A stretch of DNA of 64,000 nucleotides from Bacteroidales bacterium H3. GTDB lineage: Bacteria > Bacteroidota > Bacteroidia > Bacteroidales > Muribaculaceae. The notes below the pieces were generated by a model, which had not been told where the DNA came from, did no database searches, and was given only the letters and a program-made list of their open reading frames with translations. The stretch lies in assembly GCA_001701135.1 (NCBI GenBank), contig DAAN01000030.1, positions 248,001 through 312,000 of the forward strand. The letters are read 5' to 3'. Each line of letters opens with the position of its first letter. The first letter of the stretch is position 1. Shown one piece after another: positions 2,772 to 22,199 of this stretch. A program made the position numbers and the translations under genes.

Positions 2772-4103
2772 TTAACAATAGCGTTTGCGGTCGGGCTTGC
2801 CGTTGAATGTGCGCGCGATCGAGTCAACATATTCATATCGTAGAGGAATCTTGTAGGATTCCAGACGGGTGCGGAGCGCCTGCGCTATTTCGCGTGGCGC
2901 AGGTGGCGACGCAGGGTCGGAGGGCACGACAAGCAGTTTCAGCACATGACCCGATACCGGATGTTCGACGGGCACACACAGACAGTCGGCAATGCCGTCA
3001 ACACCCATTGCCGCATCCTCTACCTCTACCGGCGAGACTTTATAACCGCCGGTATTAATCACATCATCGTTTCGTCCGAGCATCATAAGCAGACCGTCGG
3101 AATTGAGCCGGGCGAAGTCGCGGGTGTGTATCGCTCCGTCATACAGAATGGATTGCGTGGCTTCTGGATCACCTACATATCCATCCATAAGCGTCAGACC
3201 GCGGCAGACGATGAAACCGTCAGGTGTAAGTTCCACCTGGCTGTGCCGCATCGGCCGGCCAACACATCCGGCAATCGCTTCCCCTTCATTAAAATTAAAA
3301 GTGGAAATCACCCCGGTTTCTGTGGAGGCATATGTGTTGAACAATCTGGAATGAGGCAGCAGCCGGCTTAGAGCCTGCATATCGCTGAGTGGCATGGGAG
3401 CCGCGCCGGTCTCTATAAATTCTATTTTAGAGGCCAGTGCACCAATCTGCTCCGGCGCCAATTGCAGAATCATGCGTATGCTCGCGGGCACAAGGAAAGT
3501 GGCGGATGTGTGGGGCACATTTTCAAGAGCGCCGAAAAAGGAGGCAAGGTCACGCATGCCGTCGACCACACTGACGGTGCCTCCCGCCGTAATCGTGGGA
3601 TGAATCTTGGAGAGCGACCCTATGTGGTTGAGCGGCCCGCTCACCACAAATGTCAGCCTGTCGTGAAATCCGAGGCCATGAATCAGGTTGTCGGCATTGG
3701 CTGCGTTGGCTGTCTCCCCTACTATCACACCTTTTGACCTCCCTGTGGTGCCGGTGGTGAACAGAATGTCGTAGGCATTCCCGGGCAGTTCATTGTCGGC
3801 GACAAGGGCGCTGACAGTGCGGAACAGTTCATCGGGGGCATCCTTTTCAAGCGGCACAGCCACTTTCCCCGCGAGGTGCGTGGCAAAATATTCCACAAAG
3901 AAATCGACCGAGGCCGACGCGCGGAATACCCGCGTCCTCCCGGGATTATCAGAGATGATTTCGGAGGCGCGGCGCCTGACCATCGCAGCAAGAGAGGCAT
4001 ACGACACCGACTCCCCGCCAACAATCAGCGCTGTTTTGGCGGGATGTTCTGACGCATGTTTCAGCAGATGCCGCTCGGTTGGAATCAGTTCTGCTTTCTG
4101 CAC
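2772..4103 (-). CDS. AMP-dependent acid ligase (aryl/acyl-ACP ligase of the polyene cluster)
   Basis: A 443-residue ANL-superfamily enzyme expected to adenylate a carboxylic acid and load it on an acyl carrier protein. Motifs present are the phosphate loop FTTGTTGRSKG (about 115-125), the A5-like NTYASTETG (256-264), the Asp in THTRD/DFARL (about 326-332), GRNDDVINTGGYKVSP (343-358) and the catalytic Lys in NGKPDRK (Lys436). It is shorter than fatty acyl-CoA synthetases (500-560) and similar to APE ligases. The start is GTG, overlapping the upstream ACP gene by 19 bases, so the two are translationally coupled. In APE pathways the ligase activates an aromatic acid such as a hydroxybenzoate or coumarate; which one here is inference only. 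Confidence 0.85.
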   Translation of the reverse strand: MQKAELIPTERHLLKHASEHPAKTALIVGGESVSYASLAAMVRRRASEIISDNPGRTRVFRASASVDFFVEYFATHLAGKVAVPLEKDAPDELFRTVSALVADNELPGNAYDILFTTGTTGRSKGVIVGETANAANADNLIHGLGFHDRLTFVVSGPLNHIGSLSKIHPTITAGGTVSVVDGMRDLASFFGALENVPHTSATFLVPASIRMILQLAPEQIGALASKIEFIETGAAPMPLSDMQALSRLLPHSRLFNTYASTETGVISTFNFNEGEAIAGCVGRPMRHSQVELTPDGFIVCRGLTLMDGYVGDPEATQSILYDGAIHTRDFARLNSDGLLMMLGRNDDVINTGGYKVSPVEVEDAAMGVDGIADCLCVPVEHPVSGHVLKLLVVPSDPASPPAPREIAQALRTRLESYKIPLRYEYVDSIARTFNGKPDRKRYC

Positions 4104-4321
4104 TTTTCAACCAATTCAGTGATGGAATCAATCGATGAGAAGGTGCGGGGCGAAATCTGCGGCAGCTCTATCCTCACGCCATATTTATCCGTCAGCAGCT
4201 GAATGATATATGTGGTCGAAAGCGAGTCGAGCTGCTGATAAAGATGATCGGTATTGAAATCAATCAACGGAAGCTCCGTTTCGAGCATTTCCTTGATTTC
4301 TTCGCGAAGCTGTGTATTCAT
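4085..4321 (-). CDS. Acyl carrier protein (second ACP of the cluster)
   Basis: A 78-residue acidic helical protein with the phosphopantetheine site L-D-S-L (Ser33). The DSL motif and length fit a stand-alone ACP. Its 3' end overlaps the AMP-ligase gene by 19 bases and it starts 6 bases after the exporter gene, which suggests it carries the starter unit loaded by the ligase. It differs clearly from the other ACP of the cluster at 18850-19098, so the two probably handle starter and extension separately, as in APE systems with paired ACPs. Confidence 0.85.
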   Translation of the reverse strand: MNTQLREEIKEMLETELPLIDFNTDHLYQQLDSLSTTYIIQLLTDKYGVRIELPQISPRTFSSIDSITELVEKCRKQN

Positions 4322-4327
4322 TTCAGT

Positions 4328-7459: not shown

Positions 7460-7461
7460 GG

Positions 7462-8634
7462 TCAGTCCGTCTCAGCTTTTAATTTATTATCCACCGGATT
7501 GGCATAGATGCCTAAAAAAATGTCGACAAGCTGATCGTAATCGCAAGTGTCATACTCTGCGAGCCGGCGCACCCGCGCAAGAAAAGCCTCGCGCTGTGCC
7601 TGCGTGTATTTGCCGCTGAAACGCGCCGTACCATATCGGATGTCGTAAGCGATATAATTGTTAGGAAACAGTCGGTAGGCGCGGTGAATGCGGCGGTCGA
7701 TCACCGATGCTATGCGTTTGTGGAACTCTCCGGCCGTGAGACCTTCCATTCCTGCCACCTCGACATCGCCGAGAGGTTCGCAAATTTCGATATTCACATG
7801 TCCCTTGTCCTGACATACACCGGTGAGAATGCTTGTGAGGTCTTCGAACGGTTTCTTGGTATAACGGCTGAAACGCGACTGATACAGCTCCAGAGTCTTG
7901 AGAATGTCGCACGTCTCCCACTCATACGACACCGCCACGGGAACAATATTAAGTTCGTTGATCGATTTCACCTTGTCGGCGTCGTTGCTCATGCAGAACA
8001 TCTTTATTATACCCTGATCGGTGCGGTCGTCGCCATCTTTTGTGCGGCCGTTGCGCTGGGCTATCCACACCGACTCATGCCCTACAGTGAGGGTATGACG
8101 TATATACTCCGACAGCAGCATCGAATGCCGGTAGAACTCCCTGACATTGCGGCCCGGGCGTTCCACTTTGAACATGCGGTTGCACTTGCCGATGTCTACT
8201 ATAAGAGGCGTCATCATCAGGTTGGCACCGAACGTTATCTGAGTGGTTTCGAATCCGTTCTCCACAAGCACCATCTGCAGCAGACTCGAATCGAGCATGA
8301 TGTCGCGGTGATTCGACACATAGAGATATGCTTTCGCGGGGTCGAGATAGCCTGTGCCGTTATAGGTCAGTCCGTCAGTGCAACTCTCCACAATACGGTG
8401 ATTCATTTCAATCATCGTCTCATGCTGGAAATCGCGCACATTGGTGTAACCGAGCAGACGCTTCCTCACGGTATCGATGCTTTCGTCGGGATAAATAAAT
8501 TTTGCGAGCATCGGGAACGAAACATTGTCGATGATCCGACGCATTGCGGCGGGGAGTTCCGAGTCATCGTAAGGACGCATTTCGTCGAAACGGTGCAGCA
8601 GCGTGGCGTTTAATGTATCAGTCGGGGTTATCAT
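7462..8634 (-). CDS. PlsC-like lysophospholipid/glycerol acyltransferase
   Basis: A 390-residue cytoplasmic-face acyltransferase. The motif S-N-H-R-D-I-M-L-D (His109, Asp115) is the form seen in a Bacteroidota 1-acyl-glycerol-phosphate acyltransferase family. A conserved RNGRTKDGDD segment follows, and later an EWETCD region. I chose the ATG at 8634 because it forms an ATGA overlap with the stop codon of the hydrolase before it; a 20-residue longer frame exists but would bury the start in that gene. It probably transfers an acyl chain during assembly of the lipid-anchored polyene, and may supply the activity lost from the exporter tail next to it. Confidence 0.82.
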   Translation of the reverse strand: MITPTDTLNATLLHRFDEMRPYDDSELPAAMRRIIDNVSFPMLAKFIYPDESIDTVRKRLLGYTNVRDFQHETMIEMNHRIVESCTDGLTYNGTGYLDPAKAYLYVSNHRDIMLDSSLLQMVLVENGFETTQITFGANLMMTPLIVDIGKCNRMFKVERPGRNVREFYRHSMLLSEYIRHTLTVGHESVWIAQRNGRTKDGDDRTDQGIIKMFCMSNDADKVKSINELNIVPVAVSYEWETCDILKTLELYQSRFSRYTKKPFEDLTSILTGVCQDKGHVNIEICEPLGDVEVAGMEGLTAGEFHKRIASVIDRRIHRAYRLFPNNYIAYDIRYGTARFSGKYTQAQREAFLARVRRLAEYDTCDYDQLVDIFLGIYANPVDNKLKAETD

Positions 8635-9494
8635 TTGCCAAGCGTGGGTAGTTTGTGAAACCAGTCGATGAAGAGCTGACGCCAACGGCGACACTCTTCA
8701 GTGCCCTTTGTGTCCGAGGCGCCGAATCCGTGGCCGCCGGTGGCAAACCGGTGATATTCATGAACGATGCCTTGAGCGGTGAGCGCCGAATCGAGCAACT
8801 CGGAGTTGCGGCACTCCACCACGGGGTCATCCTGGCAATTTACAAGGAACACGGGCACGCAGTCGGCAGGCACATGTTTTTCCAATGATAGCGAATCGCG
8901 CATCTGCCGGTTACCGGCGCGGTTGTCGCCCAGCAATGCCCGTCGTGAACGACCATGCGTACACTCATCCGACATACTCACCACCGGATAGACCGGAACT
9001 ACAAAAGCCGGCCTGTCATCTCTGTCAAAAAATTCCGCACCCGACATAACCAGATGTCCGCCGGCCGAAAACCCCATTGCTCCAACGCTGTCGGGATTCA
9101 CGCCATAATCTCCGGCATGGGCACGGACATAGCGGAGAGCCTGCCGCAAATCATCCTGCGGGTCGGGATAACGGTTGCCACGTGCCAACAGCCGATAATG
9201 TGTAATAAACGCAGGTATACCTGCCACACGGTATTTGAGCACAAAAGCCGCGATTCCGTTACGGTTGAGCCATTCAGCCACGGCGTGCCCCTCGGTCTCC
9301 ATATCATGCCAGAAATAGCTGCCGCCGGGACATACTATCACAGCCGGCGCATCCTTCTCTTTTGCCGGATAAGGGAAAAGCTGCACTTTGCAGTGCCCGA
9401 TGCTGTCGCGCCATATGTCAACAGGCTCCATTGCACGGGAAGCAAACGAAACAAGAATTATAATAACTAACAACAATCTTATCATAGGCATCAT
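8631..9494 (-). CDS. Exported alpha/beta hydrolase (BD-FAE/acetylxylan-esterase-like)
   Basis: A 287-residue protein with an N-terminal hydrophobic segment (about residues 4-17), then an alpha/beta-hydrolase fold. The oxyanion region VCPGGSYFW, the nucleophile elbow G-F-S-A-G-G-H and a terminal GGHGFG His are visible. Relatives are esterases of the BD-FAE/xylan-esterase type. The start used is the ATG at 9494, one base after the stop of the FAD enzyme gene; a TTG further upstream is less likely. It is embedded in the polyene operon, so it could remove or transfer an acyl or aryl ester on the product outside the cytoplasm, but it may equally be a general carbohydrate esterase. Confidence 0.8.
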   Translation of the reverse strand: MMPMIRLLLVIIILVSFASRAMEPVDIWRDSIGHCKVQLFPYPAKEKDAPAVIVCPGGSYFWHDMETEGHAVAEWLNRNGIAAFVLKYRVAGIPAFITHYRLLARGNRYPDPQDDLRQALRYVRAHAGDYGVNPDSVGAMGFSAGGHLVMSGAEFFDRDDRPAFVVPVYPVVSMSDECTHGRSRRALLGDNRAGNRQMRDSLSLEKHVPADCVPVFLVNCQDDPVVECRNSELLDSALTAQGIVHEYHRFATGGHGFGASDTKGTEECRRWRQLFIDWFHKLPTLGK

Positions 9495-9495
9495 T

Positions 9496-11010
9496 TCATC
9501 GCACAATTGAACTTTTAGACAAATCTTCTTCGTTCAATCTGTCAATTACATAATTCTGCCCGAGTATCGCTTCTGCAGTGAGAATAGCGGTAAGAGGCAC
9601 GCCGCAGAATCCGTGCAGATTATTGTTCTGCCCTGTGAGAAAGAGATTGCGCACCTTGGTTACCACAGGCACCTGCGACATCGCTATATTGTTGCAATCT
9701 TTACTGAACCCGCTGATACACCCCTCTTTCGAGCCATAGAAATCACGGATGGTCAACGGTGACGCCCCTTCAATCGAATCTATGGCGTTACCGATGCCCG
9801 GGTGCATCTTTTCAAGACAGCGCATAATATCGGCGATGCGCTCCTCTTTCCATGCCGCGTAATCGGGTCCACGGTGCCTCCATGATGTCTCCGCCCAGCG
9901 CGCAGTTTCTTCCCATAGCATGGGGGCGGTGACAAGCCCGGTTGAGGCTGAAGCCTCTTGCCTGAGAGACGGGGGCGTCATAAACAGGAAACCCAAAGGC
10001 CACTGTCGGTGTCTCTGATTGAAACGCCATATATCGTCGTAACGCGTCATGAAATACTCGCTGCACGGTATATAAGGGAACGCACCCTTGCGGAATTTCA
10101 GATAGAGCGAGAACGCGGAATAAGACACCGGGAGGGAATTGAGCCTCCCGCGATATGCCGGTGTCAGACCTCCCCCGCGCATCAGAGGGAACAATGCGCA
10201 AGGATGGATGGCCGAGATATAATAATCGGCATGATACTCCCGTCCCGATGCTGTCCGTACCAATGTCACATTACGGTCGGATACCTGAATGTCGGTGACG
10301 GCATCGGCCGCCGTCACATCGCCTCCATTCTCTCTGATTACCCTCACAAGCTCGTTGGCAAACCGCACGCTCCCTCCGGCAAACCGGCTCTGCCCCTGAA
10401 GATAGAGTACGCTGATTATCGCATGGACATAAGCGGGAGTCATGCCGCCGCAACCTCCGTAGAGAGGATTAGTGTAGGCAAGGATGGCACGGAGGCGCCT
10501 GTCACAGACATATCGCGCTATAAACGCGTCGGCTGCCATGGTGAATTCAGACGAATGAATATTGACATAACTTTCAGAACGGCGCAGCTTCAACAGCGGC
10601 ACCTCATCGGCAAGCCGGTGGATTGCCTCGACATAATCCGCTATGCCCTTTCGCTCTGCGGGAAATTCGTGCGCAAGCGACTCAGTGAAAGCGTCTCGTC
10701 CCGACGGAAGTTCATACATCCGGCTATCCTCGGCAAAGTAGAGCCTGTCGGCACAGTTTCCGTCAATATCAGCAATATCAGCCCTTAAGCCTAAATATTC
10801 GCACAGACGGCGCACACATCCACCCGGCCGCATGCCGGCGATGATATGCATGCCAGTGTCAAACGTTTCGCCCCACCGACTGAAGCTCTGCAACCCACCG
10901 CCGGGAGTGGCATTCTTTTCAAGCACAGCGACGTGGATGCCCTCCTTTGCAAGGATTGCACCGGTAAAAAGGCCACCGAGGCCGCCTCCGATTATCACTG
11001 CACTCTTCAT
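9496..11010 (-). CDS. CrtI-like FAD-dependent oxidoreductase (copy 2)
   Basis: A 504-residue flavoprotein of the phytoene desaturase/retinol saturase superfamily. It starts with MKSAVIIGGGLGGL (dinucleotide-binding GxGxxG), followed by LEKNATPGGGLQSF. The C-terminal FAD motif is LFLTGQNNNLHGFCGVPL. The ATG at 11010 overlaps the stop of the preceding gene as ATGA, which fixes the start; a longer frame was rejected. It is a paralogue of the neighbouring gene at 11007-12527. Such enzymes desaturate, saturate or isomerise conjugated chains, so a role in tuning the polyene is plausible, but the substrate is unknown. Confidence 0.85.
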   Translation of the reverse strand: MKSAVIIGGGLGGLFTGAILAKEGIHVAVLEKNATPGGGLQSFSRWGETFDTGMHIIAGMRPGGCVRRLCEYLGLRADIADIDGNCADRLYFAEDSRMYELPSGRDAFTESLAHEFPAERKGIADYVEAIHRLADEVPLLKLRRSESYVNIHSSEFTMAADAFIARYVCDRRLRAILAYTNPLYGGCGGMTPAYVHAIISVLYLQGQSRFAGGSVRFANELVRVIRENGGDVTAADAVTDIQVSDRNVTLVRTASGREYHADYYISAIHPCALFPLMRGGGLTPAYRGRLNSLPVSYSAFSLYLKFRKGAFPYIPCSEYFMTRYDDIWRFNQRHRQWPLGFLFMTPPSLRQEASASTGLVTAPMLWEETARWAETSWRHRGPDYAAWKEERIADIMRCLEKMHPGIGNAIDSIEGASPLTIRDFYGSKEGCISGFSKDCNNIAMSQVPVVTKVRNLFLTGQNNNLHGFCGVPLTAILTAEAILGQNYVIDRLNEEDLSKSSIVR

Positions 11011-13531: not shown

Positions 13532-13535
13532 AACA

Positions 13536-15299
13536 TCATTCTTCACTAATCACAAACGACTGCGAGAACACCTCGTCGGGGAGTTCCACATCCAATTTCT
13601 TTTCATCGATCAACGAGCGGAACAGCGGTGTGCACTCCTCGTGGATGCCCACCAGCACATTACGCGCCTCGCCACCGCGGATAAGCCGTTGAGCCAGTTT
13701 CACGGCATCGCGGGCCGACTCTGCACCGTTGGAAATCGTCATATTATATCCGTGACATTTCAGACGGATGGCTATGTTGCCCGCGATAGTATTGTGAGTG
13801 CTCTGCATAAATAGCGTAGGGCTCACACTCTCCCCCGCATCTGCTATCATCTCGCGAAGTATCTGCTCGCTGTTGGCCATACAGCCGTAGACCGTAGCCG
13901 AAATGATCGCGTCGGGTTTCTCCAGCCCGGCTTGTTCAAGCGCTTCAAAGGATGTGAGCAACGACGCTTTCATCAGTTGCCCCATACGCCTGGTGTCCCG
14001 CGGATTCAGGTACTTGCCGAGCCTCTGCAGTTCATCGGCGCAACGCACAAAAGCCGGGGTGCCGACTTTGAGTTTCGTTCCGCGGTTGATGACAGGCAGG
14101 TGTCCGGCTTCCCTCTTGGAAAAAATCAGAGATGTATCATTTCCTCCGAAACCGAAGGAATTGCTCATTACATTGATTATTCGGGGCGACGGTCCCCCTT
14201 GTGTCGGTTCCACACAATCGGGGTCGGGATTTATGATACCGGGATTCCCCGGCATGAAACCTTCCTTTATGGCCAGCAGCGAAATCACGGCCTCAATCCC
14301 TCCGCACGCACTGGTGGTGTGACCGGTATATGGCTTAGTACTCGACACCGGAGGCAATGCGGCACCAAAAACAGTGCGGAGAGCCGCCGACTCGGAGACA
14401 TCATTGTTAGGTGTGCCTGTGCCGTGGGCATTGATATAGCTGATGTTGTGAGGTTCAAGCTGCGCCATCGCAAGTGCCCGGCGCATGGCCTCCACAGCCC
14501 CCGCGCCCTCGGGCGAAGATGCGGTGGGATGATATGCGTCGCAGGCCACGCCCCATCCGGCCAGCCATCCGAGCACCCCGGCATGACGTCTGCGCGCCGA
14601 ATAATATTTTTCAAGCACTATGTATCCGGCTCCTTCGCCAAGGTTTAGGCCGGCACGGGCTGCATCGAACGGGCGGCTGCGGTGTTCGTCAAGAATCATC
14701 AGTGAGCGGAAGCCGTTGAAATGGAAAAGCGACAGCGCCTCGGTGCCACCCGCCACCACAATGTCAGCCTCGCCATTGCGTATCATCTCTGCTCCCACGG
14801 CTATGGCATTGGCGGCCGACGAACATGCGGTGGAAACGGTGGTATAACTGTCGAAACCGTCCCACGCCGTCCCGGCTATGGCCCGGGTGCATGCCCCGCA
14901 GTCATGTTCCCGCAGAAAATCTTTATCGGGATTCCCGCTGAACAGCATCTTTTCGGTGACATCCATTCCCCCTACGGTTGTGCCGTTGACCAATGCCACA
15001 CGGCATGCGTTGTCGAGCGTTCCGTCAATAGACACGCCTGCCGAATCGAGAGCCTGACGCACCGCGTAGACACCCATCAGAAATGTGCGGCTGTAGGTCT
15101 TTCCGACCGGAAGCCCACATTTCACCGCCAGCTCGTCATTGCTCATATTCACCTCTCCTACAGGAAGATTGTTGTGGAGAGAATGCAGATGACGCATGGT
15201 TCCGACACCGCTGCGGCGGCAACGGATTGAGTCGAAAACTTCTTGGGGAGTGACGCCCGCCGCGCATATTATTCCGGCTCCTGTTATGGCAATCTTCAT
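13536..15299 (-). CDS. Beta-ketoacyl-ACP synthase fused to a C-terminal half-ketosynthase (chain-length-factor-like) domain
   Basis: A 587-residue protein. Residues 1-395 are a complete FabF-type ketosynthase with the Cys-His-His triad: Cys159 in STACSSA, His292 in NAHGTGT, His327 in PYTGHTT. Residues about 405-587 form a second, shorter domain (ISATVYGCMANSEQI, FMQSTHNTIAGNIAIRL, SNGAESARDAV) that resembles the N-terminal thiolase half called Ketoacyl-synt_2, the domain of APE chain-length factors, with Ser/Asn where an active Cys would be. It probably condenses malonyl units on the growing polyene. The gene overlaps the ketosynthase gene before it by 4 bases (ATGA). Confidence 0.88.
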   Translation of the reverse strand: MKIAITGAGIICAAGVTPQEVFDSIRCRRSGVGTMRHLHSLHNNLPVGEVNMSNDELAVKCGLPVGKTYSRTFLMGVYAVRQALDSAGVSIDGTLDNACRVALVNGTTVGGMDVTEKMLFSGNPDKDFLREHDCGACTRAIAGTAWDGFDSYTTVSTACSSAANAIAVGAEMIRNGEADIVVAGGTEALSLFHFNGFRSLMILDEHRSRPFDAARAGLNLGEGAGYIVLEKYYSARRRHAGVLGWLAGWGVACDAYHPTASSPEGAGAVEAMRRALAMAQLEPHNISYINAHGTGTPNNDVSESAALRTVFGAALPPVSSTKPYTGHTTSACGGIEAVISLLAIKEGFMPGNPGIINPDPDCVEPTQGGPSPRIINVMSNSFGFGGNDTSLIFSKREAGHLPVINRGTKLKVGTPAFVRCADELQRLGKYLNPRDTRRMGQLMKASLLTSFEALEQAGLEKPDAIISATVYGCMANSEQILREMIADAGESVSPTLFMQSTHNTIAGNIAIRLKCHGYNMTISNGAESARDAVKLAQRLIRGGEARNVLVGIHEECTPLFRSLIDEKKLDVELPDEVFSQSFVISEE

Positions 15300-17014
15300 A
15301 GTCTGATGATGTTTTTAAGAGTGAGATCGGCGATAAAATCTTCGGTACCGGGGCAGTCGATCCAACCTGTCAGCATGGTATCAATCTGTGAAAATGAGGC
15401 CGTGGCCTCTACAATCTCCTCCATGACATTTTCGTCGCGTTCAGGCAGAATATAGAACGAAGTCTCGCCATGCCAACCGTTACGGATGGCTATTTCACCG
15501 GTGATGATATTGGGGAGCGTGTAGACAAACAACGAAGGGCTGGGGAAAAACTCATCTTCTCCTGCGATAGTCTCGAGATATTTCATGTCGGTGACTACCG
15601 ACGTCGACCGGTTGAACAACAGAGTGCCTCGGCGGTCGCCATTTTCTCCGCGGGGATTCCCTTCGGCTTGCAGCAGCAGTTCCGAAGCTATGAAACCCAG
15701 ACGGCTCAGAGGATCCATCTTATAGAACTTGGGATAATCCGCCACATAAGTTTTGTAGAGCTCAGTAAGAAGTTTCTGCCCTGTCGAGGATGCCGCAACA
15801 GGCTTTCCGTCGAGAATCACCGACTGAGGAGTGATAACTACCCGGTGGGTGGTTTCGATTTGCACTTTTGCAGGGCGCTGACCGCCATCGGAATCGAGCG
15901 AACAGCGGAGGGCTGCGTTACAACCTCCGAACCCCGACAGCAGCTTAAGGAAAGTGCGGCCTGTAGTTGGTCTTGTCGCAGCTGACACTTTCAGCTCGGG
16001 CCACACGCCGATCTCCTCAAACCCCTCTGTGGGTGCCACTCTGCCAAGTCGCAGCAGTCGGGCAGAGATAATCGTTTCAAGCACTCCGCATGCGCCCATT
16101 GTGTGTCCGAAAACACCTTTCAGGGCATTGACCGGCACATCGGTGAGCGATACCGCACCGATAGCCTGTGCCTCCATCTGATCGTTGAACATGGTGGCGG
16201 TGCCATGTGCATTGATAAAAGCAATATCCCGGAAACCGACACCCTCCATGACATCTGAAATCGCCATGGCGAGTCCCGATCCGTCGCGCACGGGAGCGCT
16301 GATGTGCCAGGCATCGTTGCGTATGCTCCCGGCGTCGATGCTGCAGCAATTACCGTCGGGTCTCTCACGCGAAAGCACAACCGTAGCGGCTGCTTCTCCG
16401 AGATTCAGACCGGTGCGCTCGATGTCGAACGGACGGCACCTGCTTCCCGACATTGCTTTAAGCGACTGAAAACCTGACACCACAAATTTTCCCTGCAGAT
16501 CGGCACCGCATACCACTGCATAGTCATAGGTTCCCGCACGGAGCAGCCGGTCGGCAAGGATCAAGGCCGAGAGTCCGGAAATGCATGCATTGCAAACACA
16601 TATAGGTTTGGTGGTGACACCGCACAGCGCCGCAATCCGGGCCGCCGCACTCCCCGGGGAAAGCGTGTCGGCGGCAATGTCGGTGTCCGTCAGATTCTCG
16701 ACGTCGGCTTTGGTCGATGCCAGCACAAAGAGCACCCTGTCTGACGTCACATCAAATCCGGGGTAATTCTCAGCTGCAGCTTCAATAGCGGCATGGGCCG
16801 AGGCTGTCGCCAGCGATTCAAACCGGGTGAGTCCGTCAGCCGCGATCCTCTCCCATTGCCCGGCAGTGAAAAGCGAAGCCACGAAAGGTTCGGGCAAACC
16901 GAAAGCGTCTTCGTAAAGCCGCAGCTGCGACTCTCCGCGCTCCACCGCCAGGCAGTTGGCCTCCGTGCCGAAACCGGCCGGTGATATGATATTGTCGGCG
17001 ATAATATAGCTCAT
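15296..17014 (-). CDS. Beta-ketoacyl synthase with degenerate C-terminal half-ketosynthase domain
   Basis: A 572-residue protein related in layout to its neighbour at 13536-15299. The first about 375 residues are a ketosynthase that keeps Cys144 (CNACISG), His270 (NAHGTAT) and His304 (VFGHTMG). The glycine loop LLSGFGGCNAAL near 358-369 closes the domain. About 175 residues follow (FYKMDPLSRLGFIASELLL, TLLFNRSTSVVTD, PSLFVYTLPNIITGEIAIR), again like the start of a chain-length factor. It probably pairs with the neighbouring enzyme. ATGA overlaps with genes on both sides indicate strict co-translation. Confidence 0.87.
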   Translation of the reverse strand: MSYIIADNIISPAGFGTEANCLAVERGESQLRLYEDAFGLPEPFVASLFTAGQWERIAADGLTRFESLATASAHAAIEAAAENYPGFDVTSDRVLFVLASTKADVENLTDTDIAADTLSPGSAAARIAALCGVTTKPICVCNACISGLSALILADRLLRAGTYDYAVVCGADLQGKFVVSGFQSLKAMSGSRCRPFDIERTGLNLGEAAATVVLSRERPDGNCCSIDAGSIRNDAWHISAPVRDGSGLAMAISDVMEGVGFRDIAFINAHGTATMFNDQMEAQAIGAVSLTDVPVNALKGVFGHTMGACGVLETIISARLLRLGRVAPTEGFEEIGVWPELKVSAATRPTTGRTFLKLLSGFGGCNAALRCSLDSDGGQRPAKVQIETTHRVVITPQSVILDGKPVAASSTGQKLLTELYKTYVADYPKFYKMDPLSRLGFIASELLLQAEGNPRGENGDRRGTLLFNRSTSVVTDMKYLETIAGEDEFFPSPSLFVYTLPNIITGEIAIRNGWHGETSFYILPERDENVMEEIVEATASFSQIDTMLTGWIDCPGTEDFIADLTLKNIIRL

Positions 17015-17442
17015 TGCAATTCGTCAATTACACCCATGCGCTCCTTCCACTGCTGATAAAAGGGGGGATTGTCCCATACAAGCTGATAATCGCGATCCAT
17101 AAACACCTGGATGGTGCGCGCTGTGGCCACAAGAGAGTCGTCGGTCGTGTCGTGTATTTCATAATCAAAGATAATCTTGGCAGCCTCGACAGGCACATAA
17201 AAAATATCTATGCGCGGATGGGAGCCATAGCGCAACGGCTTGTGATACTTGATCTGCATATCCACCAGCGGTGCGAAATATCCATTGTTGAAAATCGTGA
17301 GATATTCAAGTTCATACTCCGCGCCGAATTTCTCGCGGGCATCCTCAAGATAGAGAGGATATGCCCCGTGCCACACCACGTTCATCGAGTCAACCTCGCT
17401 GAACCGCACTTCAAATTCCTTTGATACGGCAAGTTTCTTCAT
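17011..17442 (-). CDS. Hot-dog thioesterase (4-hydroxybenzoyl-CoA thioesterase/YbgC-like)
   Basis: A 143-residue hot-dog protein with the family motif VRFSEVDSMNVVWHGAYP: Asp18 is the usual catalytic acid of the 4HBT family, followed by His25 and the helix LYLEDARE. Members hydrolyse acyl- or aroyl-CoA/ACP thioesters. In APE clusters this gene is thought to release or proofread intermediates. It lies 15 bases after the dehydratase gene and overlaps the next ketosynthase gene by 4 bases. Confidence 0.88.
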   Translation of the reverse strand: MKKLAVSKEFEVRFSEVDSMNVVWHGAYPLYLEDAREKFGAEYELEYLTIFNNGYFAPLVDMQIKYHKPLRYGSHPRIDIFYVPVEAAKIIFDYEIHDTTDDSLVATARTIQVFMDRDYQLVWDNPPFYQQWKERMGVIDELQ

Positions 17443-17457
17443 ATTCGGATAATATCA

Positions 17458-17937
17458 TCATCGTATTTCGGAGGATGCGGCATCTCCGCCATCCAGCGCT
17501 ATTTTGATTTCTGTTTCAGCCACCGGGCCTCTTTCGCCGGTGACTGTGGCCGAGGCCAGCACCATGCCGAACATCTCTTCGACCAGACGCACTTCGGTGG
17601 TAATCGTCTCGCCTGTTTCGGGCAGCCGGTGAATATGAAAATTGCGGATGGCGCCGATGAAACCTACCTGAATGCCCCGCCGGAGTATATAACGGTTGAC
17701 AAACCCGATGCGCGCGGCACAGGTCTGCGCGATATTCTCCATGACCCCCTCGGCCGAGAGGTGCCCGGCTTCGGCAAGCATATTGTCGGCGCGGACCACT
17801 GTTTCGGTGGTGATACCCTCGCTGGAGAAACCGGTCACTGTGTCGACCATCACAAACGGTTCCTGCTGTGGAAGCAATGTGTGAATGTCAATAGCGCGGA
17901 GGCTTTTTTCGTCCGGATTCCAGTCTTGGTGGCTCAT
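17458..17937 (-). CDS. 3-hydroxyacyl-ACP dehydratase (APE-type hot-dog)
   Basis: A 159-residue hot-dog dehydratase expected to remove water from 3-hydroxyacyl-ACP to make each double bond of the polyene. It has the FabZ-like lead LLPQQEPFVMVDTV and the helix region G-H-L-S-A-E-G-V-M-E-N-I-A-Q-T (His59, Glu67), which matches the His/Glu dyad of these enzymes. The classical FPGxPxxPG segment is replaced, as in the ApeI/ApeP-like family. It overlaps the acyltransferase gene before it by 4 bases. Confidence 0.86.
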   Translation of the reverse strand: MSHQDWNPDEKSLRAIDIHTLLPQQEPFVMVDTVTGFSSEGITTETVVRADNMLAEAGHLSAEGVMENIAQTCAARIGFVNRYILRRGIQVGFIGAIRNFHIHRLPETGETITTEVRLVEEMFGMVLASATVTGERGPVAETEIKIALDGGDAASSEIR

Positions 17938-18839
17938 TCGTTCCAGAATTCAAAAAAGTTATACCATTGGAGAGGATATTTGCGGAGCACCCGCTCGAGT
18001 TCAGCAGCATAAGCGGCGGCAAGTTGCGCGGTCTGCCGGTCGCGTCCGAGCGTACGGTCGTAGTCGAGTGGAGTCACATAAATGGTGTATTCGGTAGCTC
18101 CCGATTTCATCACATTCACCGCCAATGTGTCGCATCCGCGCATCACCGCCGTGCGAAACGGTCCGGCGGGAAATTGCGCTTTCCCGCCCATAAAGTCAGC
18201 TTCAACGGTTTTGAGCGAACCCATCGAACGGTCGGCGGGCATACTCACAATCTCGCCCGATGCCAATGCATCGTTAAGGCGGAACAGATGGCTGGAGTGG
18301 TCGGTGACAGGAATCATCCTGATCCTGCTGTGGCCGAACATCCGCGACCGCTCATGCATCACCGACTCTTTCTCGCCTCCAAACACCAGTGCGTTCATCG
18401 GTTTGTCAGCCGCAACGAGCGAATATCCGCCGAGTTCATAGTTTCCGACATGCGCGCTCAGCTGCACGAACCCTTCGGGTCGCCGCGCCAGTCGCAGGAA
18501 ATGCTCATAGCCCTCGATCTTCACCGTGAATTTCTTTCCGGCATACATGGCGAAACGGTCTATCACCACCTGACCGAACAGACAATGATTGCGGTAGGTG
18601 CCCCAGAGCGCTCTGCAGAAACTCATTCCGGCACGACGACGCAGATAGCGGAATATATGCCCTGCTCCGGGACGGAACAGACACACCGGCACCACAAACA
18701 GAGCGCTGAAAGCATACACCAGCCTGATGTTCACCGCACGCAGGATAGCGGTGAGCGCGTGGTGCATGCCTGCACTGCCGTTGGTGGTTCCCTGCCAGCG
18801 ACGCTCGCCGCCGGCGCTCTGTGTTGCCGTCCCGTTCAT
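17934..18839 (-). CDS. LpxL/HtrB-like lysophospholipid acyltransferase
   Basis: A 301-residue membrane-associated acyltransferase. The motif L-S-A-H-V-G-N-Y-E (His130, Glu135) is the HxxxxE of the lipid A late acyltransferase family, and the end QWYNFFEFW is typical too. A hydrophobic stretch near residues 38-55 may anchor it. In APE clusters such enzymes are thought to attach acyl groups to the lipid anchor. It lies 10 bases after the ACP gene and overlaps the dehydratase gene. Confidence 0.87.
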   Translation of the reverse strand: MNGTATQSAGGERRWQGTTNGSAGMHHALTAILRAVNIRLVYAFSALFVVPVCLFRPGAGHIFRYLRRRAGMSFCRALWGTYRNHCLFGQVVIDRFAMYAGKKFTVKIEGYEHFLRLARRPEGFVQLSAHVGNYELGGYSLVAADKPMNALVFGGEKESVMHERSRMFGHSRIRMIPVTDHSSHLFRLNDALASGEIVSMPADRSMGSLKTVEADFMGGKAQFPAGPFRTAVMRGCDTLAVNVMKSGATEYTIYVTPLDYDRTLGRDRQTAQLAAAYAAELERVLRKYPLQWYNFFEFWNE

Positions 18840-18849
18840 GCAGCCGATT

Positions 18850-19098
18850 TCAGTTTTTGGAGGTTTTGCTTTCGATGTAGTCGCAGAACTGACGTAGAGT
18901 CACCACGCCTTGCATCTCTTCGGGTTTGATTTTAAAGCCGAATTTCTTTTCCACGATAACCACGATGTCGACGAAATCAAGCGAATCAATGCCCATGTCA
19001 TCTTTCAGCCGGGCATCGTCGCTGATGGTCTCCTCCTCGATTTCGAGGTCATCGATCAGAAACTCTCTGACTTTCTCTTCAATTTCTTTTCTGTCCAT
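18850..19098 (-). CDS. Acyl carrier protein (first ACP of the cluster)
   Basis: An 82-residue acidic ACP with the phosphopantetheine site G-I-D-S-L-D (Ser39). It is close to standard fatty-acid ACPs in length and composition, and probably carries the growing chain between ketosynthase, ketoreductase and dehydratase. It sits 4 bases after the methyltransferase gene and 10 before the acyltransferase gene. Confidence 0.9.
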   Translation of the reverse strand: MDRKEIEEKVREFLIDDLEIEEETISDDARLKDDMGIDSLDFVDIVVIVEKKFGFKIKPEEMQGVVTLRQFCDYIESKTSKN

Positions 19099-19102
19099 AT
19101 TA

Positions 19103-20215
19103 TTATACTGATTGCTTTTTTCTTACCACAAGTATGCTGTGGCCCTGACCGAGATGGTCGTGAATCTCTTCAATCTCCAGTCCGGCGGCTTCGATGCAGC
19201 CGCTCAGGTCGGCGGTATTATACATTTTGCTGTTGCCGTTGGCAATAGCCGTGAAATAGAGACTGGTGAGAGTGAGACACATTGCCGCAGGCTCAAAACG
19301 CTGGCGGTCCCACAGAGTCTCCATTATATATATGCGTGTATTGTCGCCCATCGCCTCCGATGCCCGACAGAGAATGCCGGTGATCTGTTCCGGGCTGAAA
19401 CAGTCGAGAAACTGACTCATCCATATGGCATCGGGAGCTTCTGTGCTCAGGGGGAAGCGGGTTTCGGGATCGAGCAGATCTATGCCGATACCGCTGATAC
19501 GGTCGGCACCGTCGTGTCCGGCCACATTCTGCCGCATCATTTCAATCTGTCCGGGCAGATCGAGTACGGTCACACGCGCATCCGGTGAATAGCCCACACA
19601 TTGGAGCGCCCACTTGCCAGTGTTGCCTCCGACATCGTAGAGAGTGCGCACGCCCTTGATGTCAAACAGTATTTTCAGAGCTTCGGGAAACGACGAATCA
19701 CTATAGAAATGGTCGAATGCCAGCCAGCTGCGGCGCACATGTTCAGGAAGCTGCGACAGTCCCTCGTAGACCGTGGACCAGGGGCCGAGTTCACTGAGTC
19801 CGGCCGGACGCCCCTCTCTGAGAGCTTCCTCGAGATGAAACCAGCCACGATAGTTCACATCGTGATTGAAATCGATATTTACCCGGGTGGCGGGATCGTT
19901 GAGTAGAAACCACCCGGTTTTGGTGATGCTGTAACGGTCGGTATCGGTATCGACAATGACTGTCCCGATCGAAAGCGAAGCTTCCAGCAGGCATTTCACA
20001 GCATAGTCCGAGAGGCCGGTGCGCTCTACGATCTCTTCACGCGAAATTCCATCGAGTGCATCGCGAATCATATCGAGAATCCCGAATTTCACCATCAGCC
20101 GCGATGCCTGAAATACCGCCGGTCCCCATGCGATGAATTCGGCAAGACGCTGGGCTTCGCGGGCTGAAAGTGTGTCGCGGGTGTAACGCTCCTTGAGCGG
20201 TTGCGATAGTTCCAT
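19103..20215 (-). CDS. SAM-dependent (O-)methyltransferase of the polyene cluster
   Basis: A 370-residue enzyme. The N-terminal part (about 1-110) looks like the winged-helix dimerisation domain of plant-type O-methyltransferases (GILDMIRDAL, REEIVERTGLSDYAVKCLLEA). The C-terminal Rossmann part holds the SAM motif L-Y-D-V-G-G-N-T-G-K (about 192-201) and VTVLDLPGQI. In APE and related pathways a methyltransferase decorates the aryl head; the position methylated is unknown. The ATG used shares one base with the stop of the ketosynthase gene before it (TGATG); a GTG one codon earlier is an alternative. Confidence 0.85.
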   Translation of the reverse strand: MELSQPLKERYTRDTLSAREAQRLAEFIAWGPAVFQASRLMVKFGILDMIRDALDGISREEIVERTGLSDYAVKCLLEASLSIGTVIVDTDTDRYSITKTGWFLLNDPATRVNIDFNHDVNYRGWFHLEEALREGRPAGLSELGPWSTVYEGLSQLPEHVRRSWLAFDHFYSDSSFPEALKILFDIKGVRTLYDVGGNTGKWALQCVGYSPDARVTVLDLPGQIEMMRQNVAGHDGADRISGIGIDLLDPETRFPLSTEAPDAIWMSQFLDCFSPEQITGILCRASEAMGDNTRIYIMETLWDRQRFEPAAMCLTLTSLYFTAIANGNSKMYNTADLSGCIEAAGLEIEEIHDHLGQGHSILVVRKKQSV

Positions 20216-21450
20216 CACTGATTCTGGATTTTGCGGATTACAAGAGCCGAATTCGTGCCGCCGAATCCGAAAGAGTTGCTGAGGATAGTGTCGACAGGCA
20301 TATCAACTGCCGCGGTGGCAATGTTCAGCCCCGCCGAATCTTCGTCAGTATTTTCCAAATTGATGTTGGGAGCCACGAAATTGTTGCGCATCATGATTAT
20401 GGAATAGACAGCCTCGCTCGCTCCGGCCATCCAGCATTCGTGCCCGGTCATCCCCTTTGTGGATGAAATCAGTGCGCGGGTTCCGTCGAAAAGGCGGTGA
20501 AGCGCCCGCGCCTCATACATATCGCCCTGCCTGGTGGAAGTGGCGTGAGCGTTGATGTAGTCGATGTCGGCCGGCTCGACGCCGGCATCTTCCATGGCAC
20601 GGCGCATGGCAGTGACGCTCCCCTCGTCGCTCGGGTCGGAAATTCCGGCGCCGTTGCTCGAGAAGCCATAACCAGTAACCTCGCAGAGGATGCGGGCGCC
20701 GCGGGCCACCGCGTGATCGTAATCCTCAAGGACGAGCGCGGCGGCTCCTCCCGAAGGCACAAGACCGTCGCGGTCGCGGTCGAAGGGACGGCTGGCTCGC
20801 GCAGGGTCATTCATGCGTGTGGAGAACACCCCTAACGCGTCGAACGACGCCATACAATAGAAATTGGTTTCCTGAGCGCCGCCGCAGAGCACCATATCCT
20901 GCAGACCCTGTTTGATCAGCATGTAACCCAGGCCTATCGAGTGGCTTCCGCTGGCACACGCGGCGCTCACGGTGAAATTCACACCGCGGAGATGGAAGAT
21001 GGTGCTGAGGTTCATGTTTACGGTGGAATTCATCGACTGGAAAATATATCCGTAGCCGAGCATGGCCGAATCATGCTTCTCGTCCATAATTTTAGCCGTC
21101 TCGATGACCGGTTTGGCCGATGAATCATTACCGAATATACACCCCACTTCGTTGGTCCGAAGATAGGAATCGTCGACGCCTGCATCGGCAAAAGCCTGCC
21201 GCGCCGCCATATAGGCATACTGCGCCTCTTCCGACATCCCCGCACGGGTGTGGCGGTCGAGCATTGCTTTGGTGATTACAGGTGCGGGCACAATGCCCGT
21301 GAGAGCCGAACGGTAACCGTATTCCACTCTCTCCGGCTGCAAGCCGATTCCGCAGCGGCCGTTGTATAATGAATCTTTCACGGTGTCGACATCCGTGCCG
21401 ATGCACGACCAGATGCCGATGCCTGTGATAACTACTCTTCTTTGTGACAT
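20215..21450 (-). CDS. Beta-ketoacyl-ACP synthase (FabB/FabF type)
   Basis: A 411-residue stand-alone ketosynthase with the complete triad: Cys165 in SAACASGSHS, His302 in NAHATST and His337 in GMTGHECW, plus the glycine loop SNSFGFGGTNSAL near the end. Unlike the two other ketosynthases in the operon it has no extra C-terminal domain. In APE pathways a third ketosynthase of this type starts or assists elongation. It begins 17 bases after the ketoreductase gene. Confidence 0.9.
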   Translation of the reverse strand: MSQRRVVITGIGIWSCIGTDVDTVKDSLYNGRCGIGLQPERVEYGYRSALTGIVPAPVITKAMLDRHTRAGMSEEAQYAYMAARQAFADAGVDDSYLRTNEVGCIFGNDSSAKPVIETAKIMDEKHDSAMLGYGYIFQSMNSTVNMNLSTIFHLRGVNFTVSAACASGSHSIGLGYMLIKQGLQDMVLCGGAQETNFYCMASFDALGVFSTRMNDPARASRPFDRDRDGLVPSGGAAALVLEDYDHAVARGARILCEVTGYGFSSNGAGISDPSDEGSVTAMRRAMEDAGVEPADIDYINAHATSTRQGDMYEARALHRLFDGTRALISSTKGMTGHECWMAGASEAVYSIIMMRNNFVAPNINLENTDEDSAGLNIATAAVDMPVDTILSNSFGFGGTNSALVIRKIQNQ

Positions 21451-21467
21451 AGTGAATGTAAGCTGTC

Positions 21468-22199
21468 TCAGGTGTATAGGCCGCCGTTGATGTTGATTAC
21501 CTCACCGGTGATATAAGCAGACGCGTCGGAAGCAAGGAAAGCCACCAGTTCGGCCACCTCCTCGGGGCGCCCGAAACGTCCTGCGGGTATCATCTTCTCA
21601 AGTTCCTGGCGTGGCAGGTCGGCAGTCATATCTGTATCAATGAATCCGGGAGCAACTGCGTTGACAGTGACGCCGCGCGGTGCCACCTCCTGTGCCAGCG
21701 CTTTGGTAGCGCCAATCAAGGCGGCTTTAGCAGCGCTGTAGTTGGTCTGGCCCGGCATTCCCTTCACTCCGGAAAGGGATGCAATGTTGATTATGCGGCC
21801 TCCGCGCCTGCGGGGCATCATGTGTTTGAGCAATCGGCGGGTAACATGAAAAAAGCCTCCGAGAGTGGTGTCTATCACGCTGTTCCAGTCATCGTCGCTC
21901 AGCATAAACATCATGCCGTCGCGACGAATTCCGGCGTTGTTGACCAACACGGCCACATAATCGTCGGGATGCGCGTTCTCCCATTGGTCAAGAGCGCTCT
22001 CCGCTGCCTTTGGGTCAGAGGCATCAAAGGGGAGCAGCTCGGCGGCGCCCCCCTCTTGTTCTATCAGCGTGGCCACCTCGCGTGCGGCGGCTTCGTTGGA
22101 GAGATAGTTGATAATCACGGGATTGCCCTGCCGGGCGAGCCGCAAAGCAATGGCACGCCCTATGCCGCGTGATGCGCCGGTAACAAGGGTATATTTCAT
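21468..22199 (-). CDS. 3-oxoacyl-ACP reductase (FabG-type SDR), first gene of the operon
   Basis: A 243-residue short-chain dehydrogenase with TGASRGIG (cofactor loop), NNAG, and the catalytic Ser141, Tyr154 and Lys158 (YSAAK). It reduces 3-oxoacyl-ACP with NADPH, the step before dehydration. The C-terminal GGLYT is typical of FabG. It is the promoter-proximal gene of the cluster; a TAnnTTTG box lies about 40 bases upstream. Confidence 0.92.
   Translation of the reverse strand: MKYTLVTGASRGIGRAIALRLARQGNPVIINYLSNEAAAREVATLIEQEGGAAELLPFDASDPKAAESALDQWENAHPDDYVAVLVNNAGIRRDGMMFMLSDDDWNSVIDTTLGGFFHVTRRLLKHMMPRRRGGRIINIASLSGVKGMPGQTNYSAAKAALIGATKALAQEVAPRGVTVNAVAPGFIDTDMTADLPRQELEKMIPAGRFGRPEEVAELVAFLASDASAYITGEVININGGLYT

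What the first reader, a model, noticed from the sequence alone, without database searches (positions are those of the whole stretch)
2772..22199. 18-gene aryl-polyene-like cluster in a Bacteroidales genome with an unusual gene set
Sequence shows one minus-strand run with overlaps or gaps of a few bases, containing ketoreductase, three ketosynthases, dehydratase, thioesterase, two ACPs, methyltransferase, two acyltransferases, AMP ligase, LolA-like carrier and MMPL exporter. These are the building blocks of APE pathways. The extra genes (two CrtI-like flavoproteins, an exported alpha/beta hydrolase, a small exported protein) are not part of the minimal APE set known from Xenorhabdus or E. coli. 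The product may be a polyene lipid with additional redox or ester tailoring.
Basis: partly seen in the sequence, partly recalled or inferred. Interest (0 to 1): 0.72.

Follow-up and report, generated by a model that had tools for sequence, protein, structure and literature searches.

The report
Gut Bacteroidales aryl polyene gene cluster
This is a compact gut-bacterial version of the known flexirubin/aryl polyene pigment-lipid gene cluster: its 'extra' oxidoreductases are common among relatives, but its starter-loading enzymes differ from most of them and three usual genes are missing.

Summary
In detail: 18 minus-strand genes at 2772-22199, 99.7% coding, gaps -64 to +17 nt, with the named enzyme types. 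It is an aryl polyene (APE) cluster of the Bacteroidota/flexirubin lineage; 12 of 18 genes match E. coli ape genes by BLASTP.

The 'extra' genes are mostly not unusual for the phylum. A FAD1-type flavoprotein lies in 37 of 46 compared clusters (25 of 26 with a PaaK-like ligase, 8 of 14 of the window's ligase type). The small exported protein is probably LolA's LolB-like partner.

Less ordinary: (1) two ketosynthases fused to half-size chain-length-factor-like domains; (2) an ANL ligase plus private ACP where relatives carry a PaaK-like ligase, usually with tyrosine ammonia-lyase (14 versus 26 clusters, none with both); 10 of 11 ligase-type genomes have no ammonia-lyase; (3) no ApeE, ApeI or GT2-acyltransferase homologue in the window; (4) FAD2 and FAD1 are old paralogues, fused in some relatives; FAD1 is once fused to acyltransferase PLS410.

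Product and flavin reaction are inferred. New variant of a known kind.

The parts
21468..22199 (-). KR, ketoreductase (ApeQ-like)
   Evidence: PF13561 E 2e-62; 46% to E. coli ApeQ, E 1e-66
20215..21450 (-). KS411, ketosynthase (ApeR-like)
   Evidence: PF00109/PF02801; 35% to ApeR, E 1e-67; Cys-His-His kept
19103..20218 (-). OMT, SAM methyltransferase (ApeB-like)
   Evidence: PF21212/PF00891; 45% to ApeB, E 9e-106
18850..19098 (-). ACPa, acyl carrier protein (ApeF-like)
   Evidence: PF00550; 39% to ApeF, E 1e-14
17934..18839 (-). LPLAT301, lipid A-type acyltransferase (like the C-terminal part of ApeJ)
   Evidence: PF03279; 28% to ApeJ residues 317-550, E 8e-21
17458..17937 (-). DH1, hot-dog dehydratase (ApeP-like)
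   Evidence: FabZ model E 1e-6, below cut-off; 25% to ApeP, E 3e-4
17011..17442 (-). TE, 4HBT thioesterase (ApeK-like)
   Evidence: PF13279; 31% to ApeK, E 9e-16
15296..17014 (-). KSA572, ketosynthase fused to a half-KS without active-site Cys (chain-length-factor-like)
   Evidence: C144, H270, H304 invariant in 18 sequences; C-terminal part lacks the Cys; model pTM 0.93; top Foldseek match 6riw (PfaC KS-CLF) spans 756 columns, TMq 0.73, FabF chains follow at nearly equal E-value; two genes in L016/L017
13536..15299 (-). KSB587, ketosynthase (ApeO-like) fused to an ApeC-like half-KS
   Evidence: 36% to ApeO, E 1e-46; C-terminus 24% to ApeC, E 3e-6; PF13723; no Cys in the C-terminal part
12908..13546 (-). 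LolA-like carrier (ApeL-like)
   Evidence: PF03548 E 9e-20; 21% to ApeL, E 4e-5
12520..12936 (-). SML, small exported protein, probably LolB-like
11007..12530 (-). FAD2, CrtI/CrtISO-superfamily flavoprotein
   Evidence: PF01593; TIGR02733 E 1e-36 and TIGR02730 E 1e-27, both below cut-off; FAD2 clade
9496..11067 (-). FAD1, CrtI/CrtISO-superfamily flavoprotein
   Evidence: PF01593; two relatives labelled all-trans-retinol 13,14-reductase by a source; FAD1 clade; fused to PLS410 in P0080
8631..9506 (-). ABH, alpha/beta hydrolase of the BD-FAE family, probably exported
   Evidence: PF20434 E 3e-21; signal peptide and GxSxG by eye in the sequence
7462..8694 (-). PLS410, PlsC-like acyltransferase
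   Evidence: PF01553 E 0.004, below cut-off; the homologous C-terminus of P0080 passes PF01553
4328..7459 (-). MMPL exporter (ApeM-like) without the C-terminal PlsC domain seen in some relatives
   Evidence: PF03176; 27% to ApeM, E 1e-10; PF01553 in the G337 MMPL but not here
4085..4321 (-). ACPc, carrier protein next to the ligase
   Evidence: PF00550 E 8e-5; an ACP lies directly upstream of the ligase in 14 of 14 ligase-type clusters
2772..4103 (-). LIG, ANL-family AMP ligase (ApeH-like)
   Evidence: PF00501/PF13193; 23% to ApeH, E 5e-10

Best explanation
The 18 genes are one operon-like cluster for an outer-membrane aryl polyene lipid, of the Bacteroidota branch of the APE/flexirubin family. 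LIG adenylates an aryl acid and loads it on its neighbour ACPc. KS411 starts the chain; the fused KS-CLF enzymes KSB587 and KSA572 extend it with malonyl units on ACPa. KR and DH1 turn each keto group into a double bond; OMT methylates the aryl ring. TE, LPLAT301 and PLS410 release the polyene acid and ester-link it to a lipid. FAD2 and FAD1 act together on the polyene, most likely isomerising or locally saturating a double bond as carotenoid isomerase and retinol saturase do. MMPL moves the lipid out, LolA and SML carry it to the outer membrane, and ABH trims or transfers the acyl group outside the cytoplasm. Shown by computation: gene identities, fusions, neighbourhoods, active-site residues. 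Every reaction step above is inferred from homology; no product or activity is shown.
For: 12 of 18 genes match E. coli ape proteins, whose functions are tabulated in PMC8253772 (passages). Related clusters in 45 other Bacteroidota stretches. Three KS triads intact, both half-KS parts without the Cys; KSA572 best matches a KS-CLF didomain. In 393 order-level genomes a FAD1-like gene somewhere in the genome goes with the KSB gene: 103 of 105 against 12 of 288 at E<=1e-50, 83 of 105 against 6 of 288 at E<=1e-70; within 25 kb on one contig in 37 of 105 (assemblies are fragmented). FAD2 and FAD1 fall in two starred clades, lie in tandem, and are one protein FAD2~FAD1 in G412, G596 and G651; P0080 joins FAD1 to a PLS410-type acyltransferase. 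SML looks LolB-like.
Against: No homologue of ApeE, ApeI, the GT2-acyltransferase or ApeG found in the 64 kb; ApeE deletion abolishes APE in E. coli (PMC8253772, passage). The window's genome is not held, so these may lie elsewhere. Family models do not separate isomerase, saturase and desaturase: CrtD, CrtISO and CrtI all score far below cut-off. Six of 14 clusters of the window's ligase type have no FAD1-type gene in the stretch, so the flavoproteins are not obligatory there. Part of the E<=1e-50 co-occurrence comes from distant FAD proteins (about 30% identity) on other contigs, some perhaps of the separate KS-ACP-FAD locus. PLS410's acyltransferase call is weak. LolB stands only slightly above unrelated barrels.
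Confidence: 0.8

Rival explanations
1. It is a canonical flexirubin cluster: tyrosine-derived coumarate is the starter and the polyene is esterified to a dialkylresorcinol.
For: Same lineage, with homologous KS/CLF, LolA, MMPL, TE, KR and flavoprotein genes; flexirubin-type clusters are reported for five of six Bacteroidetes classes (PMC9248904, passages).
Against: No ammonia-lyase and no PaaK-like ligase in the 64 kb. Ten of 11 genomes with the same ligase cassette have no PF00221 protein. None of the 18 genes looks like a DAR gene by Pfam; DAR genes were not searched elsewhere.
Confidence: 0.05
2. The cluster is degrading: with ApeE, ApeI, the GT2-acyltransferase and the MMPL acyltransferase domain gone it no longer makes a full polyene.
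For: Of 46 clusters only the window and G636 fall below my cut-off for ApeE, and only G286, WIN, G557 and G636 lack the GT2-acyltransferase, G286 and G557 being partial.
Against: All 18 ORFs are intact and tightly packed. FAD1 and SML have relatives at 98% (clusters of 260 and 125 member sequences) and at 87-88%, which suggests maintained genes but is no test of selection. KR, DH1 and the three KS triads are intact.
Confidence: 0.1
3. ABH and the ligase form a salvage route: ABH, of a feruloyl/acetyl-xylan esterase family, frees plant hydroxycinnamates, LIG loads them, and no ammonia-lyase is needed.
For: BD-FAE family; PF00221 missing from 10 of 11 genomes with the ligase cassette and UbiC chorismate lyase from 9 of 9 tried; G012 and G337 have a second PF00756 esterase between MMPL and ACPc.
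Against: ABH is also in seven clusters with the PaaK-like ligase, four of which carry the ammonia-lyase (G412, G545, G596, G651). ABH (22 clusters) and an unrelated AAT-type hydrolase (18) exclude each other, which fits a late tailoring step better. UbiC is missing from the five PaaK-type genomes tried too, and XanB2-type chorismatase could not be tested (control silent).
Confidence: 0.15
4. The flavoproteins are desaturases (CrtI/CrtD-like) that lengthen the conjugated chain rather than isomerise or reduce it.
For: Best NCBIfam match of both is the desaturase CrtD; solved relatives include CrtI 4dgk and a gamma-carotene desaturase 4rep.
Against: KR and DH cycles without an enoyl reductase already give a fully unsaturated chain (general APE chemistry, recalled), so desaturation is not needed; all scores are below cut-off.
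Confidence: 0.25

Closest known systems
E. coli CFT073 ape cluster (apeA-R; Table 1 of PMC8253772, seen as a passage)
   Same: KR, ApeR, ApeO, ApeC, one ACP, one DH, TE, LolA-like, MMPL, AMP ligase, ApeJ acyltransferase part and methyltransferase are matched
   Different: KS and CLF fused, a second KS/half-KS pair, two flavoproteins, ABH and PLS410 added; no match found for ApeE (beyond ACPa), ApeI, ApeD, the ApeJ GT2 part, ApeG, ApeA; ApeN has no sequence match
Flexirubin clusters of Chitinophaga pinensis and Flavobacterium johnsoniae (PMC3992019: first part and passages read)
   Same: Five KS proteins are named for C. pinensis (FlxC, I, L, N, O); here five KS-type modules in three genes; LolA, exporter and acyltransferases
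   Different: No tyrosine ammonia-lyase and no PaaK-like ligase in the window; in the flexirubin-type stretches compared the half-KS genes are separate
Bacteroidia members of the flexirubin gene cluster cloud (PMC9248904, passages) and Bacteroides xylanisolvens pBGC-12 (PMC12940132, passages)
   Same: Aryl polyene type clusters of Bacteroidota, reported as similar to flexirubin
   Different: The passages seen give no gene-level account of flavoproteins, starter cassette or KS-CLF fusion
PfaC KS-CLF didomain of a polyunsaturated fatty acid synthase (PDB 6riw)
   Same: KS and CLF in one chain; top Foldseek match of KSA572
   Different: 13% identity; full-length CLF there, half-length here
Retinol saturase / carotenoid isomerase / CrtI superfamily (retinol saturase resemblance recalled and from source labels only)
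   Same: CrtI-type fold family and FAD motif of FAD1/FAD2
   Different: Two paralogues tied to a type II PKS cluster; substrate unknown

Membership tests
Aryl polyene (APE) cluster | KS-CLF pair ApeO/ApeC plus ApeR-type KS | tested here: met
   KSB587 = ApeO-like + ApeC-like in one chain; KS411 = ApeR-like
Aryl polyene (APE) cluster | KR ApeQ and at least one ApeI/ApeP-type dehydratase | tested here: met
   KR 46% to ApeQ; DH1 25% to ApeP
Aryl polyene (APE) cluster | Both dehydratases ApeI and ApeP | tested here: inconclusive
   No ApeI homologue in the 64 kb; rest of the genome not available
Aryl polyene (APE) cluster | Carrier proteins ApeE and ApeF | tested here: inconclusive
   ApeF-like ACPa present; the best ApeE-profile hit in the window is 78 bits, to ACPa; ACPc might substitute
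Aryl polyene (APE) cluster | Aryl-activating ligase (ApeH) | tested here: met
   LIG 23% to ApeH over 355 residues; substrate untested
Aryl polyene (APE) cluster | Transport set LolA-like, MMPL, LolB-like | tested here: met
   LolA and MMPL by Pfam; the LolB-like member rests on fold comparison alone, which is middling
Aryl polyene (APE) cluster | Aryl polyene product | not testable with these tools
   needs chemistry
Flexirubin cluster | Tyrosine ammonia-lyase (FlxA) in the cluster | tested here: not met
   no hit in the 64 kb
Flexirubin cluster | Ligase of the PaaK-like type found in ammonia-lyase-type relatives | tested here: not met
   no hit in the 64 kb; that FlxY itself is of this type was not tested
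Flexirubin cluster | darA/darB resorcinol genes | tested here: inconclusive
   none recognised among the 18 genes by Pfam; not searched elsewhere
ApeN (DUF3261) | DUF3261 profile match | tested here: not met
   no Pfam family for SML or for two of its ~210-aa relatives
LolB | LolB fold | tested here: inconclusive
Carotenoid isomerase / CrtI / CrtD | Curated NCBIfam cut-off | tested here: not met
   best 118.8 and 126.7 bits against a cut-off of 549.7

The most novel reading that the evidence does not exclude
In one clade of gut and rumen Bacteroidales the flexirubin-type starter supply (tyrosine ammonia-lyase + PaaK-like ligase) was replaced once by an ANL ligase with its own carrier protein, so that the aryl head of the polyene is no longer made from tyrosine but taken up as a free aromatic acid from diet or community, possibly freed by the cluster's exported esterase; where present, a FAD2-FAD1 pair then finishes the polyene at the lipid stage.
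Probability: 0.17. Interest if true: 0.7.

Novelty: new variant of a known kind. Interest (0 to 1): 0.45.

Why it matters
Aryl polyenes are the second largest class of biosynthetic clusters in rumen genomes (2,800 of 14,814 clusters from 8,160 genomes; PMC8241843, passage), with Prevotella among the expressing producers, and I found no account of their chemistry in anaerobic Bacteroidales in the searched library. The comparison gives three sharp, testable points: where the aryl starter comes from when neither ammonia-lyase nor UbiC is encoded, what the retinol-saturase-like flavoprotein pair does, and whether the covalent KS-half-CLF enzymes set chain length.

Tried and rejected
Rejected: that the flavoproteins are accidental extras (in 37 of 46 clusters; genome-level co-occurrence). 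Rejected: that SML is special to this cluster (relatives beside LolA in flexirubin-type clusters). Led nowhere: NCBIfam cannot tell isomerase, saturase and desaturase apart; the XanB2-type chorismatase search rang in no control genome, so it says nothing; promoter and terminator scans gave 23 and 18 sites against 16.2 and 17.4 in shuffles; a Bacteroides-type -7 box (motif recalled) starts 48 nt upstream of KR with an upstream TTTG spaced a little too far. The VIA second look at KSA572 covers only its KS part and does not list 6riw among the 50 rows shown. Paper search returned mostly unrelated microbiome papers. Searches (listings and starts of abstracts seen) showed no paper on these flavoproteins in APE clusters, on the ligase/lyase exchange or on fused KS-CLF in Bacteroidota; the library lacks most subscription papers.

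Limits of the counts. The Fisher values ignore kinship; the FAD1 proteins of ligase-type clusters fall in one clade, so the cassette exchange is probably a single event. Presence cut-offs were set by me after seeing the scores. From the stretches, ECO, L018, G060, G018, G056 and G008 (contig L086) were left out of the 46; the cluster in L008 was not counted because I fetched another contig of that genome (one search shows ABH, PLS410, ACPc and LIG there). Clusters cut by contig or fetch ends count as 'absent' for missing genes: at least G016, G017, G413, G488, G286, G557, L004, L005, L007, L013. Searches were given the first 80 of the 105 KSB-positive genomes. That searches drew the same 393 genomes is assumed from their handles. 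Of the 12 genomes, the ligase was seen in 11; G013's stretch ends before it.

Full report
OBSERVATION. The window holds 18 minus-strand ORFs at exactly the coordinates given, packed end to end (gaps -64 to +17 nt, 99.7% coding). No tRNA and no Rfam match at gathering score is in the window. Upstream of KR a plus-strand ORF starts at 22409; downstream an S15 peptidase follows the ligase after 28 nt but was labelled in none of the other stretches.

WHAT IT IS. Against the ape cluster of E. coli CFT073, whose functions are tabulated in PMC8253772 (passages), 12 of the 18 proteins have BLASTP matches below E 1e-3: KR-ApeQ (46%), OMT-ApeB (45%), ACPa-ApeF (39%), KSB587-ApeO (36%) with its C-terminus matching ApeC (24%), KS411-ApeR (35%), KSA572-ApeO (34%), TE-ApeK (31%), LPLAT301-ApeJ C-terminus (28%), MMPL-ApeM (27%), DH1-ApeP (25%), LIG-ApeH (23%), LolA-ApeL (21%). 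ACPc is a carrier by Pfam only. The nearest relatives are Bacteroidales: 17 of the 18 loci found with KSB587 are Bacteroidales records at 48-50% identity; the 18th is an Opitutia record with a partial match at 43%. Gene order is conserved among them. In a phylum-level sample 28 of 296 genomes match KSB587 at E<=1e-60, in an order-level sample 105 of 393 at E<=1e-80.

KS-CLF FUSIONS. KSB587 and KSA572 each carry a C-terminal extension of about 185 aa. Among 46 compared clusters, the window included, the ApeC-like part is fused to its KS in 20 and separate in 26; the second half-KS is fused in 21, separate in 23 and not assigned in 2. The N-terminal KS parts keep Cys-His-His; the extensions align to the N-terminal half of a KS and lack the Cys. 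The KSA572 model (pLDDT 87.6, pTM 0.93) has the PfaC KS-chain-length-factor didomain 6riw as top Foldseek match (E 1e-28, 756 columns, TMq 0.73), with single-domain FabF chains at nearly the same E-value. ApeO-ApeC is a known heterodimer (PMC8358021, abstract). So the cluster has two covalent KS/half-KS pairs and a stand-alone ApeR-like KS: five KS-type modules, the same number as the five KS named for C. pinensis (PMC3992019).

THE 'EXTRA' GENES. FAD: a FAD1-type gene is in the stretch of 37 of 46 clusters: 25 of 26 with a PaaK-like ligase, 8 of 14 of the window's ligase type, 4 of 6 others. By whole genome in the order sample, 103 of 105 KSB-positive and 12 of 288 KSB-negative genomes have a match at E<=1e-50; at E<=1e-70 it is 83 of 105 and 6 of 288; within 25 kb on one contig 37 of 105, many assemblies being fragmented. 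The looser count includes distant proteins on other contigs. FAD1 and FAD2 of the window fall in two starred clades (20 and 16 rows), each with members of tandem pairs, and are one polypeptide FAD2~FAD1 in G412, G596 and G651. P0080, 866 aa, is FAD1 joined to a PLS410-type protein. These links suggest the lipid-attachment stage. Family models do not decide the reaction; two relatives carry the source label all-trans-retinol 13,14-reductase. SML: relatives in flexirubin-type clusters are ~210-aa proteins, most with a lipoprotein-like Cys near the N-terminus, beside LolA; the window form is shorter and lacks it. LolB entries top the fold comparison of its model, but only just above unrelated barrels. 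ABH: BD-FAE family; in 22 of 46 clusters, while an AAT-type hydrolase (PF03417 in the two members scanned) is in 18, and none has both.

STARTER CASSETTE. In 14 of 46 clusters the ligase is LIG (ANL type), with an ACP directly upstream in 14 of 14; in 26 it is a PaaK-like ligase with no ACP directly upstream (0 of 26); none has both, 6 show neither, some of them cut short. An ammonia-lyase is in the fetched stretch of 20 of 26 PaaK-type and 0 of 14 LIG-type clusters. By whole genome, 10 of 11 genomes with LIG seen have no PF00221 protein, nor has G013 of the same clade; G014 has one on another contig. In 80 of the 105 KSB-positive genomes 6 have LIG; 5 of these 6 lack PF00221, against 4 of 74 without LIG; the sixth, G521, has its LIG and its PF00221 on contigs other than that of its KSB. 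A PF00221 gene within 20 kb of KSB is seen in 35 of 74 and 0 of 6. UbiC-type chorismate lyase is absent from 14 of 14 genomes tried, 9 LIG-type and 5 PaaK-type, with E. coli ringing as control; the chorismatase test was void. Draft and MAG genomes can miss genes. In the FAD1 tree the window sits in a starred clade of 11 rows, 8 of them from clusters with LIG seen and none from PaaK-type clusters, so one exchange is the simplest history. The 64 kb window has no ammonia-lyase and no PaaK-like ligase.

WHAT THE WINDOW LACKS. By my cut-offs the ApeE-like ACP is missing only in the window and G636 of 46; the GT2-acyltransferase in G286, WIN, G557 and G636; the ApeI-like DH2 in 16 including the window. 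The MMPL of G337 carries a PlsC domain at 886-1014; those of the window and G014 do not. Because the genome is not held, the missing functions may be encoded elsewhere.

HOW IT WORKS (inferred). Aryl acid loaded by LIG on ACPc; KS411 initiates; KSB587 and KSA572 elongate; KR and DH1 make the conjugated chain; OMT methylates; TE, LPLAT301 and PLS410 move the acid to a lipid; FAD2/FAD1 act on the polyene; MMPL, LolA and SML export; ABH trims or transfers outside. Shown here: homology, active-site residues, fusions, co-occurrence, neighbourhoods. Not shown: substrates, product, direction of the flavin reaction.

STATUS IN PRINT. Flexirubin-type clusters in five of six Bacteroidetes classes (PMC9248904, passages), a B. 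xylanisolvens aryl polyene cluster similar to flexirubin (PMC12940132, passages) and 2,800 aryl polyene clusters in rumen genomes, some expressed by Prevotella (PMC8241843, passages), are known. The listings of nine searches showed nothing on the ligase/lyase exchange, the flavoprotein pair or the fused KS-CLF genes. Verdict: a real, conserved, new variant of a known kind.

Noticed in passing
L001-L005, L007, L010, L011, L013, L015, G006 (L074-L075), G009 (L076-L077): Twelve rumen-type relatives keep the KS-CLF fusions, ACPs, OMT and most of the rest but have no DH1, DH2 or TE in the stretch. KR is also not found; in G006, G009 and L015 the genes upstream of KS411 are not KR (ExbD-like by eye), in L004, L005 and L007 the stretch ends too early to tell. 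Their product may not be a polyene, or the steps are borrowed.
   Followed up: partly
L086 9556-10977, L090 9897-11294, L091 9146-10549, L092 8514-9917: A separate recurring locus: KS411-like ketosynthase (an ACP was called in L091), then a FAD2-family flavoprotein followed by an ~844-aa exported protein; these flavoproteins form their own long-branched clade. L089 has the KS but no flavoprotein was called in the greedy ORF list.
   Followed up: partly
G697 (L112-L113), G636 (L150-L151): Stripped clusters with KS-CLFb, ACP, OMT, KS411 and flavoproteins but no LolA, MMPL, KR, DH or TE found in the stretch.
   Followed up: no
L068 271-1581, L127 7534-8880: A PF00756 esterase (the family of mycolyltransferase antigen 85, recalled) between MMPL and ACPc in G012 and G337.
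   Followed up: no
L129 13232-14587, L132 4454-5812, L118 10807-12114: B12-binding radical SAM proteins in clusters with the PaaK-like ligase; G660 and G408 have no OMT hit, so this may be a replacement methyltransferase.
   Followed up: no
window 875-2743: S15-type dipeptidyl-peptidase 28 nt downstream of the ligase on the same strand; not labelled in the other stretches.
   Followed up: no
window 4328-7459: The C-terminal region of MMPL, where some relatives hold a PlsC domain, has no PF01553 match and no NHxSxxD motif here.
   Followed up: partly
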